Shown: in pieces, positions 15,514 through 43,850 of the stretch
Layout of the letters: each line of letters begins with the position of its first letter
How positions within the stretch are numbered: the first letter of the stretch is position 1
Assembly: GCA_025698865.1 (NCBI GenBank)
Contig: JAILWQ010000003.1
Span: 434,001-498,000, forward strand
Origin: Erythrobacter sp.
GTDB lineage: Bacteria; Pseudomonadota; Alphaproteobacteria; Sphingomonadales; Sphingomonadaceae
Length of the DNA: 64,000 nt
Direction of reading: 5' to 3'
Translations under genes and position numbers: made by a program
The notes under the pieces: generated by a model
Told to the model about the DNA's origin: nothing
Databases searched by the model: none
The model's input: the letters and a program-made list of their open reading frames with translations, nothing else

Positions 15514-18248
15514 CAGAATTGCGTCCCTACGTTGAAGGTGAGGAGTTTGGTGTCGTCGCCCGGCTGCTTCTTGAGCACATGAGCGAGGTCGATCCGGAAC
15601 GGACCGAAAGGCGAGTTCCAGTTGACGCCGATGCCAACCGAAATGCGCGGCGCCGGACTGTCGCCCAGGAAGACTTCCTGGAACGCCGGAAGAACGTTGC
15701 CCTGGCGGACGAACCCGTCGGGGATCGGATCGCCGACCGGGATGCCCACGGCCACGTCGTCAGTCGCATCGTCGGGATCGCCGGGGTTGAGGAACACCGG
15801 ATTGCCCGCGCTGTCACGAAGCGGAATGAAAATCTCGTTGCCCAGCGGGTTCTGGATAAGCGCCGGATCGGTGACATTGAACAGCGCGCCGACATCCATG
15901 AAGATGGACGGGCGAAGTCCGAGTTCGCGAGCGCCGCTGCCCAACGGGATTTCGATCTCGGCGCGACCGAGATAGTAGGCGGTCCCGCCGATCGCGTCGT
16001 CGTTGATCCGGTTGCGATCAGTGATGACGACCGGATTGCCGTCCTCGTCGGCGACGATCGACTGACGCAGGACGCGCGGGCCGACGCCGCGGATGTCGAA
16101 TCCGCGGATCTGCGGTTCACCGAGGAAGAAACGGTCCGTGAGGCGCACGTCGTCGGTGCCGGGAAGGTTCCGATTCTCGAAGCTGCGAATCGCGCCGCCT
16201 TCCACCGAGAGCGAACCGATGAAACCGGCGGGCAGCGGCACGTATTGCGCCGCGCGCCCGCGAATGCGCAGGAAGTTCACCGACCCGCCAAGTCCCGCAT
16301 ATTCGGCACTGACCGACATGTTGCGGCCACGCGTCGGGCGGAGACGGCTGTTGGTGTTGTCGAGAGACAGGGTCAGGCCGAGGATCGAACTGGTTCGCTC
16401 GCCGATGGCGTCGCACAGGAACCGCCCGGCCAAAAGGGGTTCGCAGGTCCGGATACCGTCGCCGTCGAAATCGGCGAAGAACTGGTTCTCGTCGAGCGAG
16501 ACGTCGTCGTAATTGAGCGTGTAGCTGCCGATCAGCGACATGTATTCGGTCAGCGGTACACCAGCGCGGAACGAAATGCCGGTCGTCGCCTGCTCGAAGG
16601 TCGTGTTGCGATCGCCACCGCTGAAATTGAAATTGTTGTAGTCGCGCCGGTAGAGATCGACCCCTGCCGAGATGTTGCGGTCGAACAGGTAGGGCTCGGT
16701 GAAGCTCGCCTGGGCCGAGCGCGAGAAGCGCGAATAATTGACGCTGAGACCGATCGTCTGGCCACGCCCGCGGAAGTTACGCTGGCGGATCGCACCCTGA
16801 AGGATGAAGTTCTCGATCGAGGAGAAACCAGCCGACAATTGCAATTCGCCGGTGGCCTGTTCTTCCACATTCGCCTCGAGGACGATGCGGTCGGGGGCGC
16901 TGCCGTCGACCTGATTGATCTCGAAATTCTCCTGGAAGAATCCGAGCGAATTGATGCGCGCGGTCGAGCGCTTGACCTGCAGGGAGTTGAACGCATCGCC
17001 TTCCGAGATGCGGAATTCGCGGCGCACGACCTTGTCCTGCGTCAGAGTGTTGCCGTTGACGTCGATCCGCTCGACATAGACCCGCGGGGCCTCCGCGAGC
17101 TGGAAGGTCACATCCATCGTCAGCGTCTCGCGATTGCGCGAGAATTGCGGTTCGATGTCCGCGAAGGCATAGCCGAACGCGCCGGCCAGTTCGGACATCT
17201 GCTCGACCGTGTCCTCGACCAGCTTGGCGTCGTACCAGTCGCCGGTCTTCATCGGCACGGTCCGGGCGAGCTGCGAGCTGTCGAAATCGCGCAGCTGGCT
17301 TTCGACGTCGACCTCGCCGAACTTGTAGCGCTCGCCTTCTTCGACGACATAGGTGATGATGAAATCGCGCTTGTCCGGCGTCAGCTCGGCGACGGCGGAG
17401 ACGACGCGGAAATCGGCATAACCCTGCGTCAGGTAGAAACGGCGCAGATTCTGTTGGTCGAAGGCCAGCCGGTCGGGATCGTAGCTGGTGTTGGAGCTAA
17501 GGAAACTCAGCAGGCCGCCGGTCTGCTTGGTCACCATCTCGCCGCGCAACTCGCCATCGGAGAAGGCTTCGTTGCCAATGATGTTGATCTGGCGAATCTT
17601 GGATTTGGGCCCCTCCTCGATCTCGAACACGATATCGACGCGGTTCTGGGCGAGCTGGACCGATTGGGGTTCGACCGTGGCGGCGAACCGCCCCTGCCGC
17701 TTGTAGAGCTCGATGATGCGCGCAACGTCGGCGCGGACCTTGGAGCGCGTGAAGATCTGGCGCGGGGCAAGCCGGATTTCGGGCAGGATCTTGTCATCCT
17801 TGATACGGCTATTGCCTTCGAGGATGATGCGGTTGATCACCGGATTCTCGGTGATGGTGATCGTGACATTCCCGTTCTCGAACGCCACGCTCGCATTCGA
17901 GAACAGCTCGGTCGCGTAGAGATCCTTCAGCACCTCATCGCCGACGACCTGGCTCCAGGCGTCGCCGGGGCGCAGGCGGATGTAGGAAAGGATCGTCTGC
18001 GGCTCGAGCCGCTGGGCGCCGGACACCGAGATCGTGCGCACGATCTCGGTCTGCTGCGGCGCGGTTGCCGGCTGGGCAGTGGCTGGCGCCGGCGCAGGTT
18101 GTGCGCTCGTCGGTGCTGACGCCGCCGGAGCAGCATCCTGCGCCATGGCGGCGGCGGGCATTCCGGTGAGGATCGTGCCGGCCAGCAGAGTCCCGGTCAG
18201 CCGCGTCGCGTTACGCTTTGCGGCAATGGCAATGTTCTTCGTCGACAA
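15513..18248 (-). CDS. bamA: Outer-membrane protein assembly factor BamA
   Basis: Central Omp85 component of the BAM complex that inserts beta-barrel proteins in the outer membrane. It has a signal peptide (about 1-37), a Pro/Ala/Gln-rich linker (about 40-68), five POTRA domains to about residue 430, and a 16-strand barrel ending in the required aromatic residue (G-T-Q-F). At 911 residues it is roughly 100 longer than E. coli BamA. The extra length is in the linker and in barrel loops, one of which carries acidic D-P-D-D-A-T-D-D. It lies between rseP and skp, the standard arrangement. Confidence 0.96.
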   Translation of the reverse strand: MSTKNIAIAAKRNATRLTGTLLAGTILTGMPAAAMAQDAAPAASAPTSAQPAPAPATAQPATAPQQTEIVRTISVSGAQRLEPQTILSYIRLRPGDAWSQVVGDEVLKDLYATELFSNASVAFENGNVTITITENPVINRIILEGNSRIKDDKILPEIRLAPRQIFTRSKVRADVARIIELYKRQGRFAATVEPQSVQLAQNRVDIVFEIEEGPKSKIRQINIIGNEAFSDGELRGEMVTKQTGGLLSFLSSNTSYDPDRLAFDQQNLRRFYLTQGYADFRVVSAVAELTPDKRDFIITYVVEEGERYKFGEVDVESQLRDFDSSQLARTVPMKTGDWYDAKLVEDTVEQMSELAGAFGYAFADIEPQFSRNRETLTMDVTFQLAEAPRVYVERIDVNGNTLTQDKVVRREFRISEGDAFNSLQVKRSTARINSLGFFQENFEINQVDGSAPDRIVLEANVEEQATGELQLSAGFSSIENFILQGAIRQRNFRGRGQTIGLSVNYSRFSRSAQASFTEPYLFDRNISAGVDLYRRDYNNFNFSGGDRNTTFEQATTGISFRAGVPLTEYMSLIGSYTLNYDDVSLDENQFFADFDGDGIRTCEPLLAGRFLCDAIGERTSSILGLTLSLDNTNSRLRPTRGRNMSVSAEYAGLGGSVNFLRIRGRAAQYVPLPAGFIGSLSVEGGAIRSFENRNLPGTDDVRLTDRFFLGEPQIRGFDIRGVGPRVLRQSIVADEDGNPVVITDRNRINDDAIGGTAYYLGRAEIEIPLGSGARELGLRPSIFMDVGALFNVTDPALIQNPLGNEIFIPLRDSAGNPVFLNPGDPDDATDDVAVGIPVGDPIPDGFVRQGNVLPAFQEVFLGDSPAPRISVGIGVNWNSPFGPFRIDLAHVLKKQPGDDTKLLTFNVGTQF

Positions 18249-26119: not shown

Positions 26120-26875
<756 letters not shown>

Positions 26876-27096
26876 AATCATATTCCTTTCCGGTTGGACC
26901 TCTGGAAGGCTGGAACCCGGATGCGGAGCTTCCCGCGATCGGGCACCGGTATGATGCGCCTTCCATGTGGATTTGGCCTTCCGGAGACGGGTCGAAGATC
27001 CGAATCCGGGAGAACCGGCGGCGATCTAGCGACGCGGCTCGGAAAAATCCAGCCTCAATTCGTCGCAGATCAGTAGGGTCCGGTCGCGTTTTCCGC
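26876..27096 (-). other. rpsB leader region with alternative pairing segments
   Basis: About 220 bases upstream of rpsB hold no gene. On the minus strand two copies of GGAAGGC (26958-26964 and 26976-26982) can each pair with GCCTTCC (26904-26910) close to the start codon; the nearer pairing extends to eight bases. This might be an autoregulatory leader, but no known rpsB leader class was recognised and no clear promoter could be fixed. Confidence 0.35.
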
Positions 27097-27125
27097 TTGA
27101 CTGGCGTGAACAAAAAGAGAACATT
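27097..27125 (+). promoter_or_regulatory. LexA box inside a sigma-70-like promoter
   Basis: GAAC-N7-GAAC (27108-27122) is the reverse complement of GTTC-N7-GTTC, the LexA site of Caulobacter, Rhodobacter and Rhizobium. A -35-like TTGACT lies at 27097-27102 and a -10-like AACATT at 27120-27125, spaced by 17 bases. The LexA site therefore covers the spacer and touches the -10. The promoter points at the small gene starting at 27227. Confidence 0.7.
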
Positions 27126-27180
27126 GGTCGCCAGATCGGGAACCCGTCTCGATATGGGATGTTTTCAACTCGTTCTCCAC

Positions 27181-27196
27181 AGCCTGTCAACAGGCT
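27181..27196 (+). other. Leader hairpin AGCCTG-TCAA-CAGGCT
   Basis: A perfect six-pair stem with a TCAA loop lies in the predicted 5' leader between the LexA-type promoter and the small ORF, 30 bases before the start codon. It has no T-run. It could modulate translation or stability of the leader; function is unknown. Confidence 0.45.
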
Positions 27197-27226
27197 CGGG
27201 AAAGCGACAACAGAAAGATCGGTTCG

Positions 27227-27478
27227 ATGTCCGCAATTGTTCTGACAGCCTTTTTCGCCTTCATTGCCCTGACTGCGGTTACGGCTCTCGCCGACAGCGC
27301 GCTTCGCTGGTGGTCGGCGTTCGGCCTGCTCCGCGCGAGCGGCGTGGCGACCGGCGTTGCGCCGGCCCTGCTCCGCGGGCGCCGTGCCGAAATCGTGCAT
27401 GGCGGCTTTTCGGGATATGGCCGCGCTACGGCCGCGCGTCAGCCTTCGCAGCGCTGCGCATTGCGCGCTGCCGCTTGA
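27227..27478 (+). CDS. Small membrane protein, candidate SOS-induced gene
   Basis: An 83-residue ORF beginning M-S-A-I-V-L-T-A-F-F-A-F. One membrane segment covers residues 3-23, followed by L-R-W-W-S-A-F-G-L-L-R and a basic, low-complexity C-terminal half. No family was recognised. The case for a real gene is the upstream LexA box and promoter (27097-27125) and the strongly hydrophobic start. Against it are a weak ribosome site and a 53-base overlap with the 3' end of pssA on the other strand. Small LexA-controlled membrane peptides such as Caulobacter SidA block division, so a checkpoint role is an inference worth testing. Confidence 0.55.
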   Translation: MSAIVLTAFFAFIALTAVTALADSALRWWSAFGLLRASGVATGVAPALLRGRRAEIVHGGFSGYGRATAARQPSQRCALRAAA

Positions 27479-28283
27479 CCTTGGCGTAACGCGCCCAGCC
27501 CAGCGGCAGCAGTGCGAGGTAGACGAGGCTGATAATCGCCAGCGTCCACCAAGGCTCCAGCAGGAGACCCGCGAACAGAAGGCCGGTCAGCGCGAGCAGC
27601 CACAGCCGGATATCGCGACGCGGTTTCAACGACGCCCAGCTGAGCGTTGCGAGGTTCGAGATCATCAGCAGCGCCATCAGGGCGACCCATGGTCCCACCA
27701 GCAACGGCTCGCGAAACACCGTGATCCCGGTCGTGGTCCACAGGTAGAACGGCAGGAAAGCCAGCCCCGCTCCGACGGGTGCGGGAATGCCGGTCAGAAA
27801 GCCCGCCGACTTGTGCGGCTGCTCATCCGCATCGATCCGCGCATTGAAACGCGCGAGGCGCAGAGCAGCGCATACCGCAAAGGCCAGCGCGGCGATCCAT
27901 CCGAGACGCGGGCTTGCCGAAAGCGACCAGAGATAGATCACGATCGCCGGTGCGGTTCCGAAGGAAAGCGAATCGGCGAGGCTGTCGAGCTCCGCTCCGA
28001 AGCGCGACTGACCGTTCAGCATCCGCGCGATGCGGCCGTCCATGCCGTCGAGCACGCCCGCCAGGATGATCGCACCGACCGCCAGAGCCCAAGTGCCGGA
28101 AACTGCGAAAAGGATGCCGGTCAGGCCCGAACACATCGCGGCGGTGGTTACCGCGTTGGGCGCGAAGGTGCGCAGGGTCAGCCCGCCCTTCACTCCCCCG
28201 GTGGCGAAATCGTCCTCGTCCTCGGATGCCTTGGGGCCGACGCGTGGCCGGTCGTCCGCCGGACCCCTGCCATGGGGAATCAC
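27426..28283 (-). CDS. pssA: CDP-diacylglycerol-serine O-phosphatidyltransferase
   Basis: Makes phosphatidylserine from CDP-DAG and serine at the inner membrane. The 285 residues contain the CDP-alcohol phosphotransferase signature DG-x2-AR-x8-G-x3-D-x3-D, starting D-G-M-D-G-R-I-A-R near residue 75, and about seven membrane segments. The start is GTG 28283, overlapping the psd stop by four bases (GTGA); an acidic S-E-D-E-D-D stretch lies at about 20-25. It acts directly before Psd, its neighbour. Confidence 0.93.
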
Positions 28284-29032
28284 TGCGCGATGCCTTCGAT
28301 ATGCTTCGCAACGCCCATTTCGGCGAGAACGGTTTCGCCTGCGATCACCCGCTGGCCGAGCAGGACGCTCGAATCGGTCCCCGCCGGGAGATAGACATCG
28401 ACCCTGCTGCCGAAGCGGATCAGGCCGACCCGCTGCCCGCTGCCCACCGTGTCGCCTTCCTTGACGAAGGGCACGATCCGCCGCGCCACCAGCCCGGCGA
28501 TCTGGGTAAAGCCGAGCCGCACGCCATCGGCCCGCTCGATCAGGATATGCTGGCGCTCGTTCTCCTCGCTCGCCTTGTCGAGATCGGCGTTGAGGAACTT
28601 GCCGGGAATATAGACCAGCCGCCGGATGACGCCGCCGATCGGGGCGCGATTGATGTGGACGTCGAACACGCTCATGAAGATTGAGACGCGGGTGACCGGC
28701 CCTGCCGCAAGCCCCTCTATCCCGCTGCCATCGTCGATCTTGAGCTCTTCGGGCGGCTCGACCTGCGCGATGAGGGAGACCAGGCCGTCGGCGGGCGCCA
28801 CGATCGCGCCTTCCGAATGCGGCACGACTCTCTCGGGATCGCGGAAGAAGGCGAAGACGCCGGCCGAGAGCATCAGCAACGGCCAGCCCACGATCTCCCA
28901 ATCGAGAAGCAGCAGGAAGATCAGGCTGATGCCGACGGCGATCAGGCCGAACTTGCGCCCTTCGGGATGGATCGGGGGGAAGGACCATGCGACGTCGCCG
29001 CGGCCCCGGTTGTCGAGAAGTTCACCTGCCAT
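28280..29032 (-). CDS. psd: Phosphatidylserine decarboxylase proenzyme
   Basis: Converts phosphatidylserine to phosphatidylethanolamine. This is the short bacterial form: 250 residues from ATG 29032 with two membrane segments near residues 28-62. The self-cleavage site is Gly208-Ser209 (I-R-F-G-S-R), where the serine becomes the pyruvoyl cofactor. The upstream ATG-like position 29068 would add an unconserved 12-residue stretch, so I prefer 29032. It is coupled to pssA by a four-base overlap. Confidence 0.94.
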
Positions 29033-43832: not shown

Positions 43833-43850
43833 ATTGAACCGGGTCTGAAC
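43833..43850 (-). promoter_or_regulatory. Direct-repeat response-regulator box, lipoprotein promoter
   Basis: The + strand reads ATTGAAC-cgggtc-TGAAC, i.e. GTTCA-N6-GTTCA toward the lipoprotein gene, an 11-bp period typical of OmpR/PhoB-family sites. Two GGTAACG copies at 43855-43861 and 43865-43871 continue the phase. The same motif occurs at 46427-46444. Confidence 0.6.

What the first reader, a model, noticed from the sequence alone, without database searches (positions are those of the whole stretch)
27097..27478. LexA-controlled small membrane protein, candidate SOS division inhibitor
GAAC-N7-GAAC (27108-27122), the alphaproteobacterial LexA pattern, sits exactly between a TTGACT -35 and an AACATT -10 with 17-bp spacing. 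The promoter faces an 83-residue ORF with a single N-terminal membrane helix and no recognised family. Caulobacter SidA and DidA are small membrane proteins that halt division after DNA damage, so an analogous checkpoint in this lineage would be new.
Basis: partly seen in the sequence, partly recalled or inferred. Interest (0 to 1): 0.72.

Follow-up and report, generated by a model that had tools for sequence, protein, structure and literature searches.

The report
SOS-controlled small membrane protein, sphingomonads
A small membrane protein, probably switched on by DNA damage and probably built to be destroyed quickly afterwards, is encoded next to the same ribosomal gene in most sphingomonad bacteria examined, and is a good but untested candidate for an unidentified brake on cell division in that lineage.

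Summary
In detail: GAACAAAAAGAGAAC (27108-27122) behind TTGACT, before an 83-codon ORF (27227-27478) between rpsB and pssA. The same operator pattern precedes lexA, recA and radA in this genome. Within 1.5 kb of rpsB, on the divergent side, 78 of 80 named loci and 42 of 60 further genera carry it; 119 following ORFs, 118 distinct, were taken. pN is below pS in 59 of 59 nearest-neighbour pairs chosen by rpsB. First, 106 of 118 proteins end in Ala-Ala, against 74 of 1890 other ORFs; the host tmRNA tag ends LAA, suggesting a ClpXP-type degron. Second, exact DnaA-box-like sites: 16 in 8658 leader bases against 2 in 185470 surrounding bases. No curated family matches. Sister families lack the locus (0 of 20); some other alphaproteobacteria carry SidA-sized ORFs behind LexA boxes upstream of dnaE. 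Division inhibition is inferred, not tested. Best reading: a lineage-wide SOS membrane checkpoint protein, analogous to SidA but differently built.

The parts
27097..27102 (+). TTGACT, -35-like hexamer, 5 bases before the LexA box
   Evidence: Sequence. TTGACN6GAACN7GAAC, at any gene, occurs in 88 of 149 family genomes; by my reading of the table 12 of 149 have the reversed control pattern. 73 of 121 boxed loci have at least 5 of 6 matches to TTGACA at this spacing.
27108..27122 (+). LexA operator GAAC-N7-GAAC
   Evidence: the pattern, in either orientation, lies before lexA, recA, uvrA, uvrD, radA and an rSAM_link_UDG gene in this genome; present in 78 of 80 named loci and 42 of 60 further genera.
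27120..27125 (+). AACATT, weak -10-like hexamer overlapping the second half site
   Evidence: Sequence; 3 of 6 to consensus, not called by the promoter scan.
27173..27181 (+). TTCTCCACA, DnaA-box-like site (one mismatch to TTATCCACA) in the leader; the only TT[ATC]TCCACA in the 64 kb window, both strands
   Evidence: 37 of 118 distinct leaders have a site with at most one mismatch on this strand, 2 of 118 on the other; 0.67 expected over 119 leaders from single-base shuffles.
27182..27195 (+). GCCTGTCAACAGGC, palindromic leader element shared with relatives
   Evidence: 13-sequence leader alignment, invariant CTG-x-CAACA; 5-pair hairpin with almost no covariation support. CTGTCAA in 19 of 119 leaders against 0.36 expected.
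27227..27478 (+). ORF of 83 aa: SOS-controlled small membrane protein
   Evidence: purifying selection among relatives.
27233..27289 (+). Transmembrane segment, residues 3-21, no charge before it
   Evidence: Hydropathy; AlphaFold helix 2-41.
27467..27475 (+). C-terminal Ala-Ala-Ala, predicted ssrA-like degron
   Evidence: 106 of 118 distinct proteins end in AA, 57 in AAA, against 74 of 1890 other ORFs of the loci and 6 of 260 in the window, this ORF included; host tmRNA tag ANDNEALALAA.
26120..26881 (-). rpsB, divergent neighbour (ribosomal protein S2), synteny anchor
   Evidence: Pfam PF00318.
27426..28286 (-). pssA-like CDP-alcohol phosphatidyltransferase, convergent (start codon not settled); its 3' end overlaps the last 53 bp of the ORF
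   Evidence: Pfam PF01066 and PF08009; coordinates.

Best explanation
This is a lineage-specific SOS checkpoint gene. LexA sits on GAACN7GAAC between the -35 and -10 and blocks transcription; when RecA triggers LexA cleavage the gene is released. The product is a small single-pass inner-membrane protein, N-terminus outside and basic disordered tail in the cytoplasm (inferred from charge). It most likely holds division back by acting on a late membrane component of the septal machinery, as SidA does with FtsW (inferred by analogy). The C-terminal Ala-Ala mimics the host ssrA tag, so ClpXP or a related protease would remove it quickly once LexA is restored (inferred). DnaA-like sites in the leader may add a brake tied to replication initiation (inferred). 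Shown by computation: the box, the conserved architecture, the ORF under selection, the AA ending, the DnaA-like sites. Inferred: LexA binding, induction, topology, proteolysis, target.
For: Operator before lexA, recA, uvrA, uvrD and radA in this genome. Box plus ORF divergent from rpsB in 78 of 80 named loci and 40 of 60 further genera. pN below pS in 59 of 59 nearest-neighbour pairs picked by rpsB alone, median ratio 0.63, range 0.17-0.96, and in 44 of 44 pairs picked by protein identity, 0.17-0.67. 106 of 118 proteins end in AA; tmRNA tag ends LAA. 117 of 119 lack K/R before the helix and 118 of 119 are net positive after it. Two of the 60 genera without an exact box (L156, same as named L134; L169) keep an AAA-ending ORF behind a one-mismatch box. 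Small membrane SOS inhibitors whose C-terminus is under proteolytic control are known elsewhere (SosA, PMC6851548, passages). In Caulobacter, constitutive sidA expression makes lexA mutants filament (PMC12700426, passages).
Against: No experiment. 20 of the 60 further genera lack exact box plus ORF at rpsB: 2 of these have a box without a fitting ORF, 2 a near-box with an AAA-ending ORF, 16 neither. The protein evolves fast (median pN/pS 0.63), and profile comparison of the Erythrobacter-type and Sphingomonas-type sets aligns only 24 columns of the helix, probability 39%, E 0.0003. The ORF criterion is loose (225 of 705 random points). Starts were trimmed towards the helix: 32 of 119 ORFs have an in-frame upstream ATG, and in 12 the extension holds K/R. 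SOS-induced single-helix peptides can be depolarising toxins instead (DinQ, PMC3567139, abstract).
Confidence: 0.5

Rival explanations
1. SOS-induced membrane toxin of the TisB/DinQ type: the peptide depolarises the membrane and lowers growth, giving tolerance rather than a specific division block; the leader would limit translation.
For: Single hydrophobic helix, LexA box, leader of median 96 nt from box start to ATG with shared elements. DinQ precedent: SOS-regulated, toxic, depolarising (PMC3567139, abstract).
Against: 117 of 118 distinct proteins are 64-102 aa with a basic tail and AA end, unlike toxins of roughly 20-30 aa (recalled); Rfam has no match in 26800-27500, though no other search for an antisense RNA was made; box and ORF are kept at one chromosomal place across most genera sampled.
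Confidence: 0.2
2. SOS-induced membrane-to-nucleoid tether or modulator of another envelope enzyme (for example the convergent phosphatidylserine synthase): the Arg-rich tail binds DNA or acidic lipid.
For: Mean 10.4 K/R against 3.6 D/E after the helix; tail predicted disordered; position next to pssA-like and psd-like genes in the window.
Against: In several Novosphingobium and Tsuneonella loci the box lies 0.35-1.2 kb from rpsB, so the neighbourhood is not fixed; no DNA-binding family found.
Confidence: 0.2
3. The box and ORF are accidental: GAACN7GAAC is frequent and long ORFs arise by chance in GC-rich DNA.
For: Window count of the bare pattern is not above chance; 225 of 705 random points satisfy the loose ORF criterion.
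Against: 112 of 141 loci with a box within 400 bp against 0.95 expected; AA ending and pN below pS in 59 of 59 pairs.
Confidence: 0.02
4. It is the orthologue of Caulobacter SidA moved to the other side of rpsB, since dnaE and rpsB are neighbours in many alphaproteobacteria.
For: LexA-boxed tiny ORFs lie upstream of dnaE in other families; dnaE precedes rpsB in many class genomes (coordinates); no box upstream of dnaE in 29 of 29 sphingomonads. sidA is CCNA_02004 (PMC10769358, passage), dnaE is CC1926 (PMC1839093, passage).
Against: Opposite charge pattern around the helix, length two- to three-fold larger, none of 13 tiny ORFs ends in AA, divergent orientation; similarity to SidA itself could not be tested because its sequence is not held.
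Confidence: 0.08

Closest known systems
SidA, Caulobacter crescentus
   Same: LexA-controlled small inner-membrane protein in an alphaproteobacterium; likely role in blocking division (PMC4211646, passages).
   Different: SidA is 29 aa and interacts with FtsW; this family is 64-102 aa in 117 of 118 cases, with an uncharged N-terminus, a basic tail predicted cytoplasmic and an Ala-Ala end, and sits next to rpsB. SidA sequence not available here.
DidA, Caulobacter crescentus
   Same: 71 aa, one predicted helix, DNA damage induced (PMC4211646, passages).
   Different: DidA is induced by DriD independently of SOS and interacts with FtsN; this gene has a LexA box.
SosA (Staphylococcus) and YneA (Bacillus)
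   Same: SOS-induced single-pass division inhibitors; SosA is 77 aa and its C-terminus is proposed to control turnover (PMC6851548, passages).
   Different: The SosA C-terminus is extracellular and proposed as a CtpA substrate; here the tail is predicted cytoplasmic with an ssrA-like end. No LysM match, which YneA has.
TisB and DinQ, Escherichia coli
   Same: SOS-regulated single-helix inner-membrane peptides (DinQ: PMC3567139, abstract; TisB details recalled).
   Different: Type I toxin-antitoxin arrangement with antisense RNA; much shorter (recalled).
Joint DnaA and LexA control of uvrB, recN and dinJ in E. coli
   Same: DnaA boxes beside LexA boxes at SOS genes, both repressing (PMC6015884, abstract).
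   Different: Here the sites lie in the leader of a small membrane protein gene in another class; DnaA binding untested.

Membership tests
LexA regulon (alphaproteobacterial operator) | GAACN7GAAC within a promoter, as at lexA and recA of the genome | tested here: met
   conservation.
LexA regulon (alphaproteobacterial operator) | LexA binding and damage induction | not testable with these tools
   Needs footprint and expression data.
SidA | about 29 aa inner-membrane peptide | tested here: not met
   83 aa; relatives 52-102 aa, median 80.
SidA | sequence similarity to SidA | not tested
   SidA sequence not seen in any call; the 2011 paper is not held.
SidA | interacts with FtsW and blocks division | not testable with these tools
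   Needs experiment.
SidA | gene position: LexA-boxed tiny ORF upstream of dnaE | tested here: inconclusive
   No box upstream of dnaE in 29 of 29 sphingomonads, but that sidA itself lies there is inferred, not shown.
DidA | LexA-independent induction through DriD | tested here: inconclusive
   LexA box present; no DriD site was sought.
SosA/YneA | extracellular C-terminus (LysM domain in YneA) | tested here: inconclusive
   Prediction only: net positive tail in 118 of 119 suggests a cytoplasmic tail; no LysM among Pfam matches.
TisB/DinQ type I toxin | antisense RNA partner | tested here: inconclusive
   No Rfam match in 26800-27500; no expression data.
ClpXP ssrA-type substrate | C-terminal -AA on an unstructured tail | tested here: met
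   low pLDDT tail, with a short predicted helix at 76-81.
ClpXP ssrA-type substrate | degradation by ClpXP | not testable with these tools
   Needs experiment.
DUF2537 (PF10801) | score over Pfam cut-off | tested here: not met
   19.4 bits against 23.2; 1 of 20 members.

The most novel reading that the evidence does not exclude
Sphingomonads (GTDB Sphingomonadaceae) share one previously unnamed SOS checkpoint protein family with a self-destruct, ssrA-mimicking cytoplasmic tail and joint LexA and DnaA control, which replaced a class-wide SidA family encoded upstream of dnaE: same job, opposite membrane orientation, different locus.
Probability: 0.3. Interest if true: 0.8.

Novelty: new variant of a known kind. 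Interest (0 to 1): 0.63.

Why it matters
Known SOS division inhibitors are unrelated from group to group and too short for easy homology searches, so many lineages have none named. This gives a concrete candidate for a large and well-cultured group (Erythrobacter, Novosphingobium, Sphingobium and relatives), with a simple experiment, and a way to find such genes elsewhere: LexA box, short helix, fixed neighbour. The Ala-Ala end suggests how the brake could be released in a Gram-negative cell through a cytoplasmic protease, in contrast to the extracellular proteolysis proposed in Firmicutes. The DnaA-like sites, if real, would tie the brake to replication initiation.

Tried and rejected
Chance box: rejected on conservation. 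A box serving rpsB alone: set aside because promoter layout, ORF and selection point away from rpsB; it may still also affect rpsB. DUF2537 relation: below cut-off in 1 of 20 members. Rfam leader families: none at E up to 1. RNA hairpin in the leader: 5 pairs, covariation term -0.05 kcal/mol, one pair with changes on both sides; kept as unexplained. SidA orthology: the dnaE-rpsB gap of 20 other-family genomes has no box, but the 0.8 kb upstream of dnaE has one in 16 of 60 (1.32 expected from single-base shuffles); 9 of those 16 have an ATG tiny-helix ORF 20-125 bases on, against 21 of 880 random points in unboxed loci. The two protein sub-alignments could not be joined beyond part of the helix.

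Sampling and corrections told plainly. Of 96 genera in the family sample I fetched one genome for each of 60, mainly the more distant ones; the other 36 (near ones, own genus, some fragmented) were dropped. Named and unnamed sets overlap: L117/L164 give the same protein, L134/L156 the same ORF. Class genomes: upstream of rpsB in the 27 best-matching other-family genomes of the 190 searched (two have an isolated box without ORF), upstream of dnaE in 60, mostly one per family and at least 2.0 Mb. The pairs were picked by protein identity, which favours low pN, and are not independent; one search repeats the test with pairs picked by rpsB. The site densities used an imprecise leader border and are replaced. 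Controls for chance AA endings used ATG ORFs of at least 60 codons in all frames, not curated genes. Motif expectations use single-base shuffles.

Full report
The feature. The window (G000, contig C20) carries rpsB on the minus strand (26120-26881), then, reading away from it, TTGACT 27097-27102, GAACAAAAAGAGAAC 27108-27122, a 104-base leader, and an 83-codon ORF 27227-27478, whose last 53 bases overlap the 3' end of a convergent pssA-like gene. The bare operator pattern is common (3 in the window, 1.62 expected), so the case had to rest on comparison.

LexA control. In the same genome the pattern, in one or the other orientation, lies before lexA (L146), recA (L006), uvrA (L008, in the same TTGACN6GAACN7GAAC layout), uvrD (L005), radA (L145) and an rSAM_link_UDG gene (L001). 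lexA, recA, radA and rSAM_link_UDG pass NCBIfam cut-offs; uvrA and uvrD are cut by the end of the fetched stretch and stay below theirs despite E-values of about 1e-168 or lower. The TTGACN6GAACN7GAAC layout occurs, at any gene, in 88 of 149 family genomes and 20 of 190 class genomes.

Conservation. rpsB loci were gathered without regard to the ORF. Of 80 named loci (Qipengyuania, Erythrobacter, Altererythrobacter, Novosphingobium, Porphyrobacter, Tsuneonella, Sphingobium and others) 78 have the box within 1.5 kb and 78 a following helix-bearing ORF; of 60 further genera 42 and 40. With the window this makes 119 ORFs, 118 distinct. L134/L156 and L169, without an exact box, keep an AAA-ending ORF behind a one-mismatch box. 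Several Erythrobacter-type loci have two or more boxes. Outside the family I did not find the arrangement: 0 of 20 genomes of sister families in the order, searched over 2.4-3 kb (one has a box pointing the other way 2.4 kb off, without ORF), and 0 of 27 of other families, over 0.5-1.5 kb (two have an isolated box but no ORF).

The ORF is a gene. With pairs picked as nearest neighbours by rpsB, pN is below pS in 59 of 59; median ratio 0.63, range 0.17-0.96; for the 29 pairs counted at rpsB identity of 90% or more, the median is 0.57. With 44 pairs picked by protein identity, a biased choice, the ratio is 0.17-0.67, and lower in the first 40 codons than after in 28 of 44. So constraint is real but moderate; where the ORF overlaps pssA, as in the window, the 3' end is also under pssA constraint. 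Majority consensus of 20 Erythrobacter-type sequences: MFALxLxALFAxxAxAxxxVLADSGLRWWSAFGxLR...RAAA; the Sphingomonas-type set (18 rows, one entered twice) shares part of the helix and the ending. A warning: a like loose test (hydrophobic ATG ORF of 45-150 codons within 260 bases) is met near 225 of 705 random points, so presence of an ORF alone is weak evidence.

(a) The C-terminus: 106 of 118 distinct proteins end in AA, 57 in AAA; of other ATG ORFs in the same loci 74 of 1890 end in AA, and of all ATG ORFs in the window 6 of 260, this one included. Of the 12 exceptions most keep a small hydrophobic residue at the end; L111 (HV) and L192 (RR) fit least. The tmRNA of this genome encodes the tag ANDNEALALAA. 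The tail is predicted mostly disordered (block means of pLDDT 49-56 from residue 41, short helix 76-81). An ssrA-like degron is the natural reading; that ClpXP reads such ends is established knowledge, recalled. (b) The leader: TTATCCACA, the DnaA box (recalled consensus), is exact in 16 of 118 leaders and within one mismatch in 37 of 118, on the reverse strand (one mismatch allowed) in 2 of 118. Exact sites number 16 on the sense strand in 8658 leader bases, against 2 on both strands in 185470 bases around them; with one mismatch 42 against 11. Upstream of the LexA box one-mismatch sites occur in 2 of 111 on this strand and 2 of 111 on the other. In the window the site is TTCTCCACA, 27173-27181. 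The strand bias would also fit an RNA element.

Topology. The hydrophobic core starts at residue 3 (median); 117 of 119 have no K/R before it and 118 of 119 are net positive after it, which by the positive-inside rule means N-out, C-in. I trimmed starts towards the helix: 32 of 119 ORFs have an in-frame upstream ATG after the box, 12 of them with K/R in the extension, so the first number is favoured by method.

Relation to SidA. In other alphaproteobacterial families dnaE often precedes rpsB (coordinates). Upstream of dnaE, 16 of 60 genomes have the operator (1.32 expected) and 9 of those 16 have a tiny ATG ORF with a helix 20-125 bases on (random points: 21 of 880). The 13 examples I list are 26-47 aa (one with a GTG start); 13 of 13 have a charged residue in the first 12, 1 of 13 has K/R in the last 8, and none ends in AA; for example MSEWVKDTAALFVLGAVMWSGFALTAAAQAAG in L321. 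SidA is 29 aa (PMC4211646, passages), sidA is CCNA_02004 (PMC10769358, passage), dnaE is CC1926 (PMC1839093, passage) and CCNA_02005 a nucleoside hydrolase (PMC3667746, passage); that sidA and dnaE are neighbours is likely but not shown here. Of 29 sphingomonads none has a box in the up to 1.5 kb upstream of dnaE (a few cut by contig ends). No genome that I examined at both places had boxes at both, but not every genome was examined at both. This is what a functional replacement would look like.

Mechanism. SOS-induced small membrane proteins are division inhibitors in several groups: SidA, SosA and YneA (PMC6851548, passages), but DinQ shows that they can be depolarising peptides (PMC3567139, abstract). 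I favour a division inhibitor with fast proteolytic release at about even odds. Joint DnaA and LexA repression of SOS genes has a precedent in E. coli (PMC6015884, abstract).

Literature. Searches joining LexA with Sphingomonadales, the LexA regulon with sphingomonads, and DnaA boxes with LexA and division inhibitors showed no title or abstract on this gene among the papers listed, which were 20 of 290, 15 of 505 and 15 of 137. The library lacks most subscription papers; I read listings, abstracts and passages only.

Noticed in passing
L309, L310, L321, L333, L338, L345, L348, L359, L364, L365, L368, L296, L297 (upstream of dnaE): LexA-boxed ORFs of 26-47 aa with one helix upstream of dnaE in other alphaproteobacterial families; a candidate class-wide SidA-like family.
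   Followed up: partly
window 27173-27181 and leaders of 37 of 118 distinct ORFs: DnaA-box-like sites, strand-biased, between LexA box and start codon.
   Followed up: partly
window 27182-27195; leaders of L056-L073: Conserved CTGTCAACAG element in the leader; possible hairpin with very weak covariation.
   Followed up: partly
L089, L099, L103, L105, L112, L119, L127: Three or four LexA boxes close together at the same promoter in Erythrobacter-type genomes.
   Followed up: no
L136 (G000:C1:361700-364700): A box 76 bp before a 228 aa protein with weak, below cut-off matches to S24-type regulators and UmuD-like subunits, distinct from LexA.
   Followed up: no
L398 (G000:C1:419774-420116): tmRNA (alpha_tmRNA, RF01849) with tag ANDNEALALAA.
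   Followed up: yes
window 15681-15695 and 43836-43850: Two further GAACN7GAAC matches with GC-rich spacers, probably chance.
   Followed up: no
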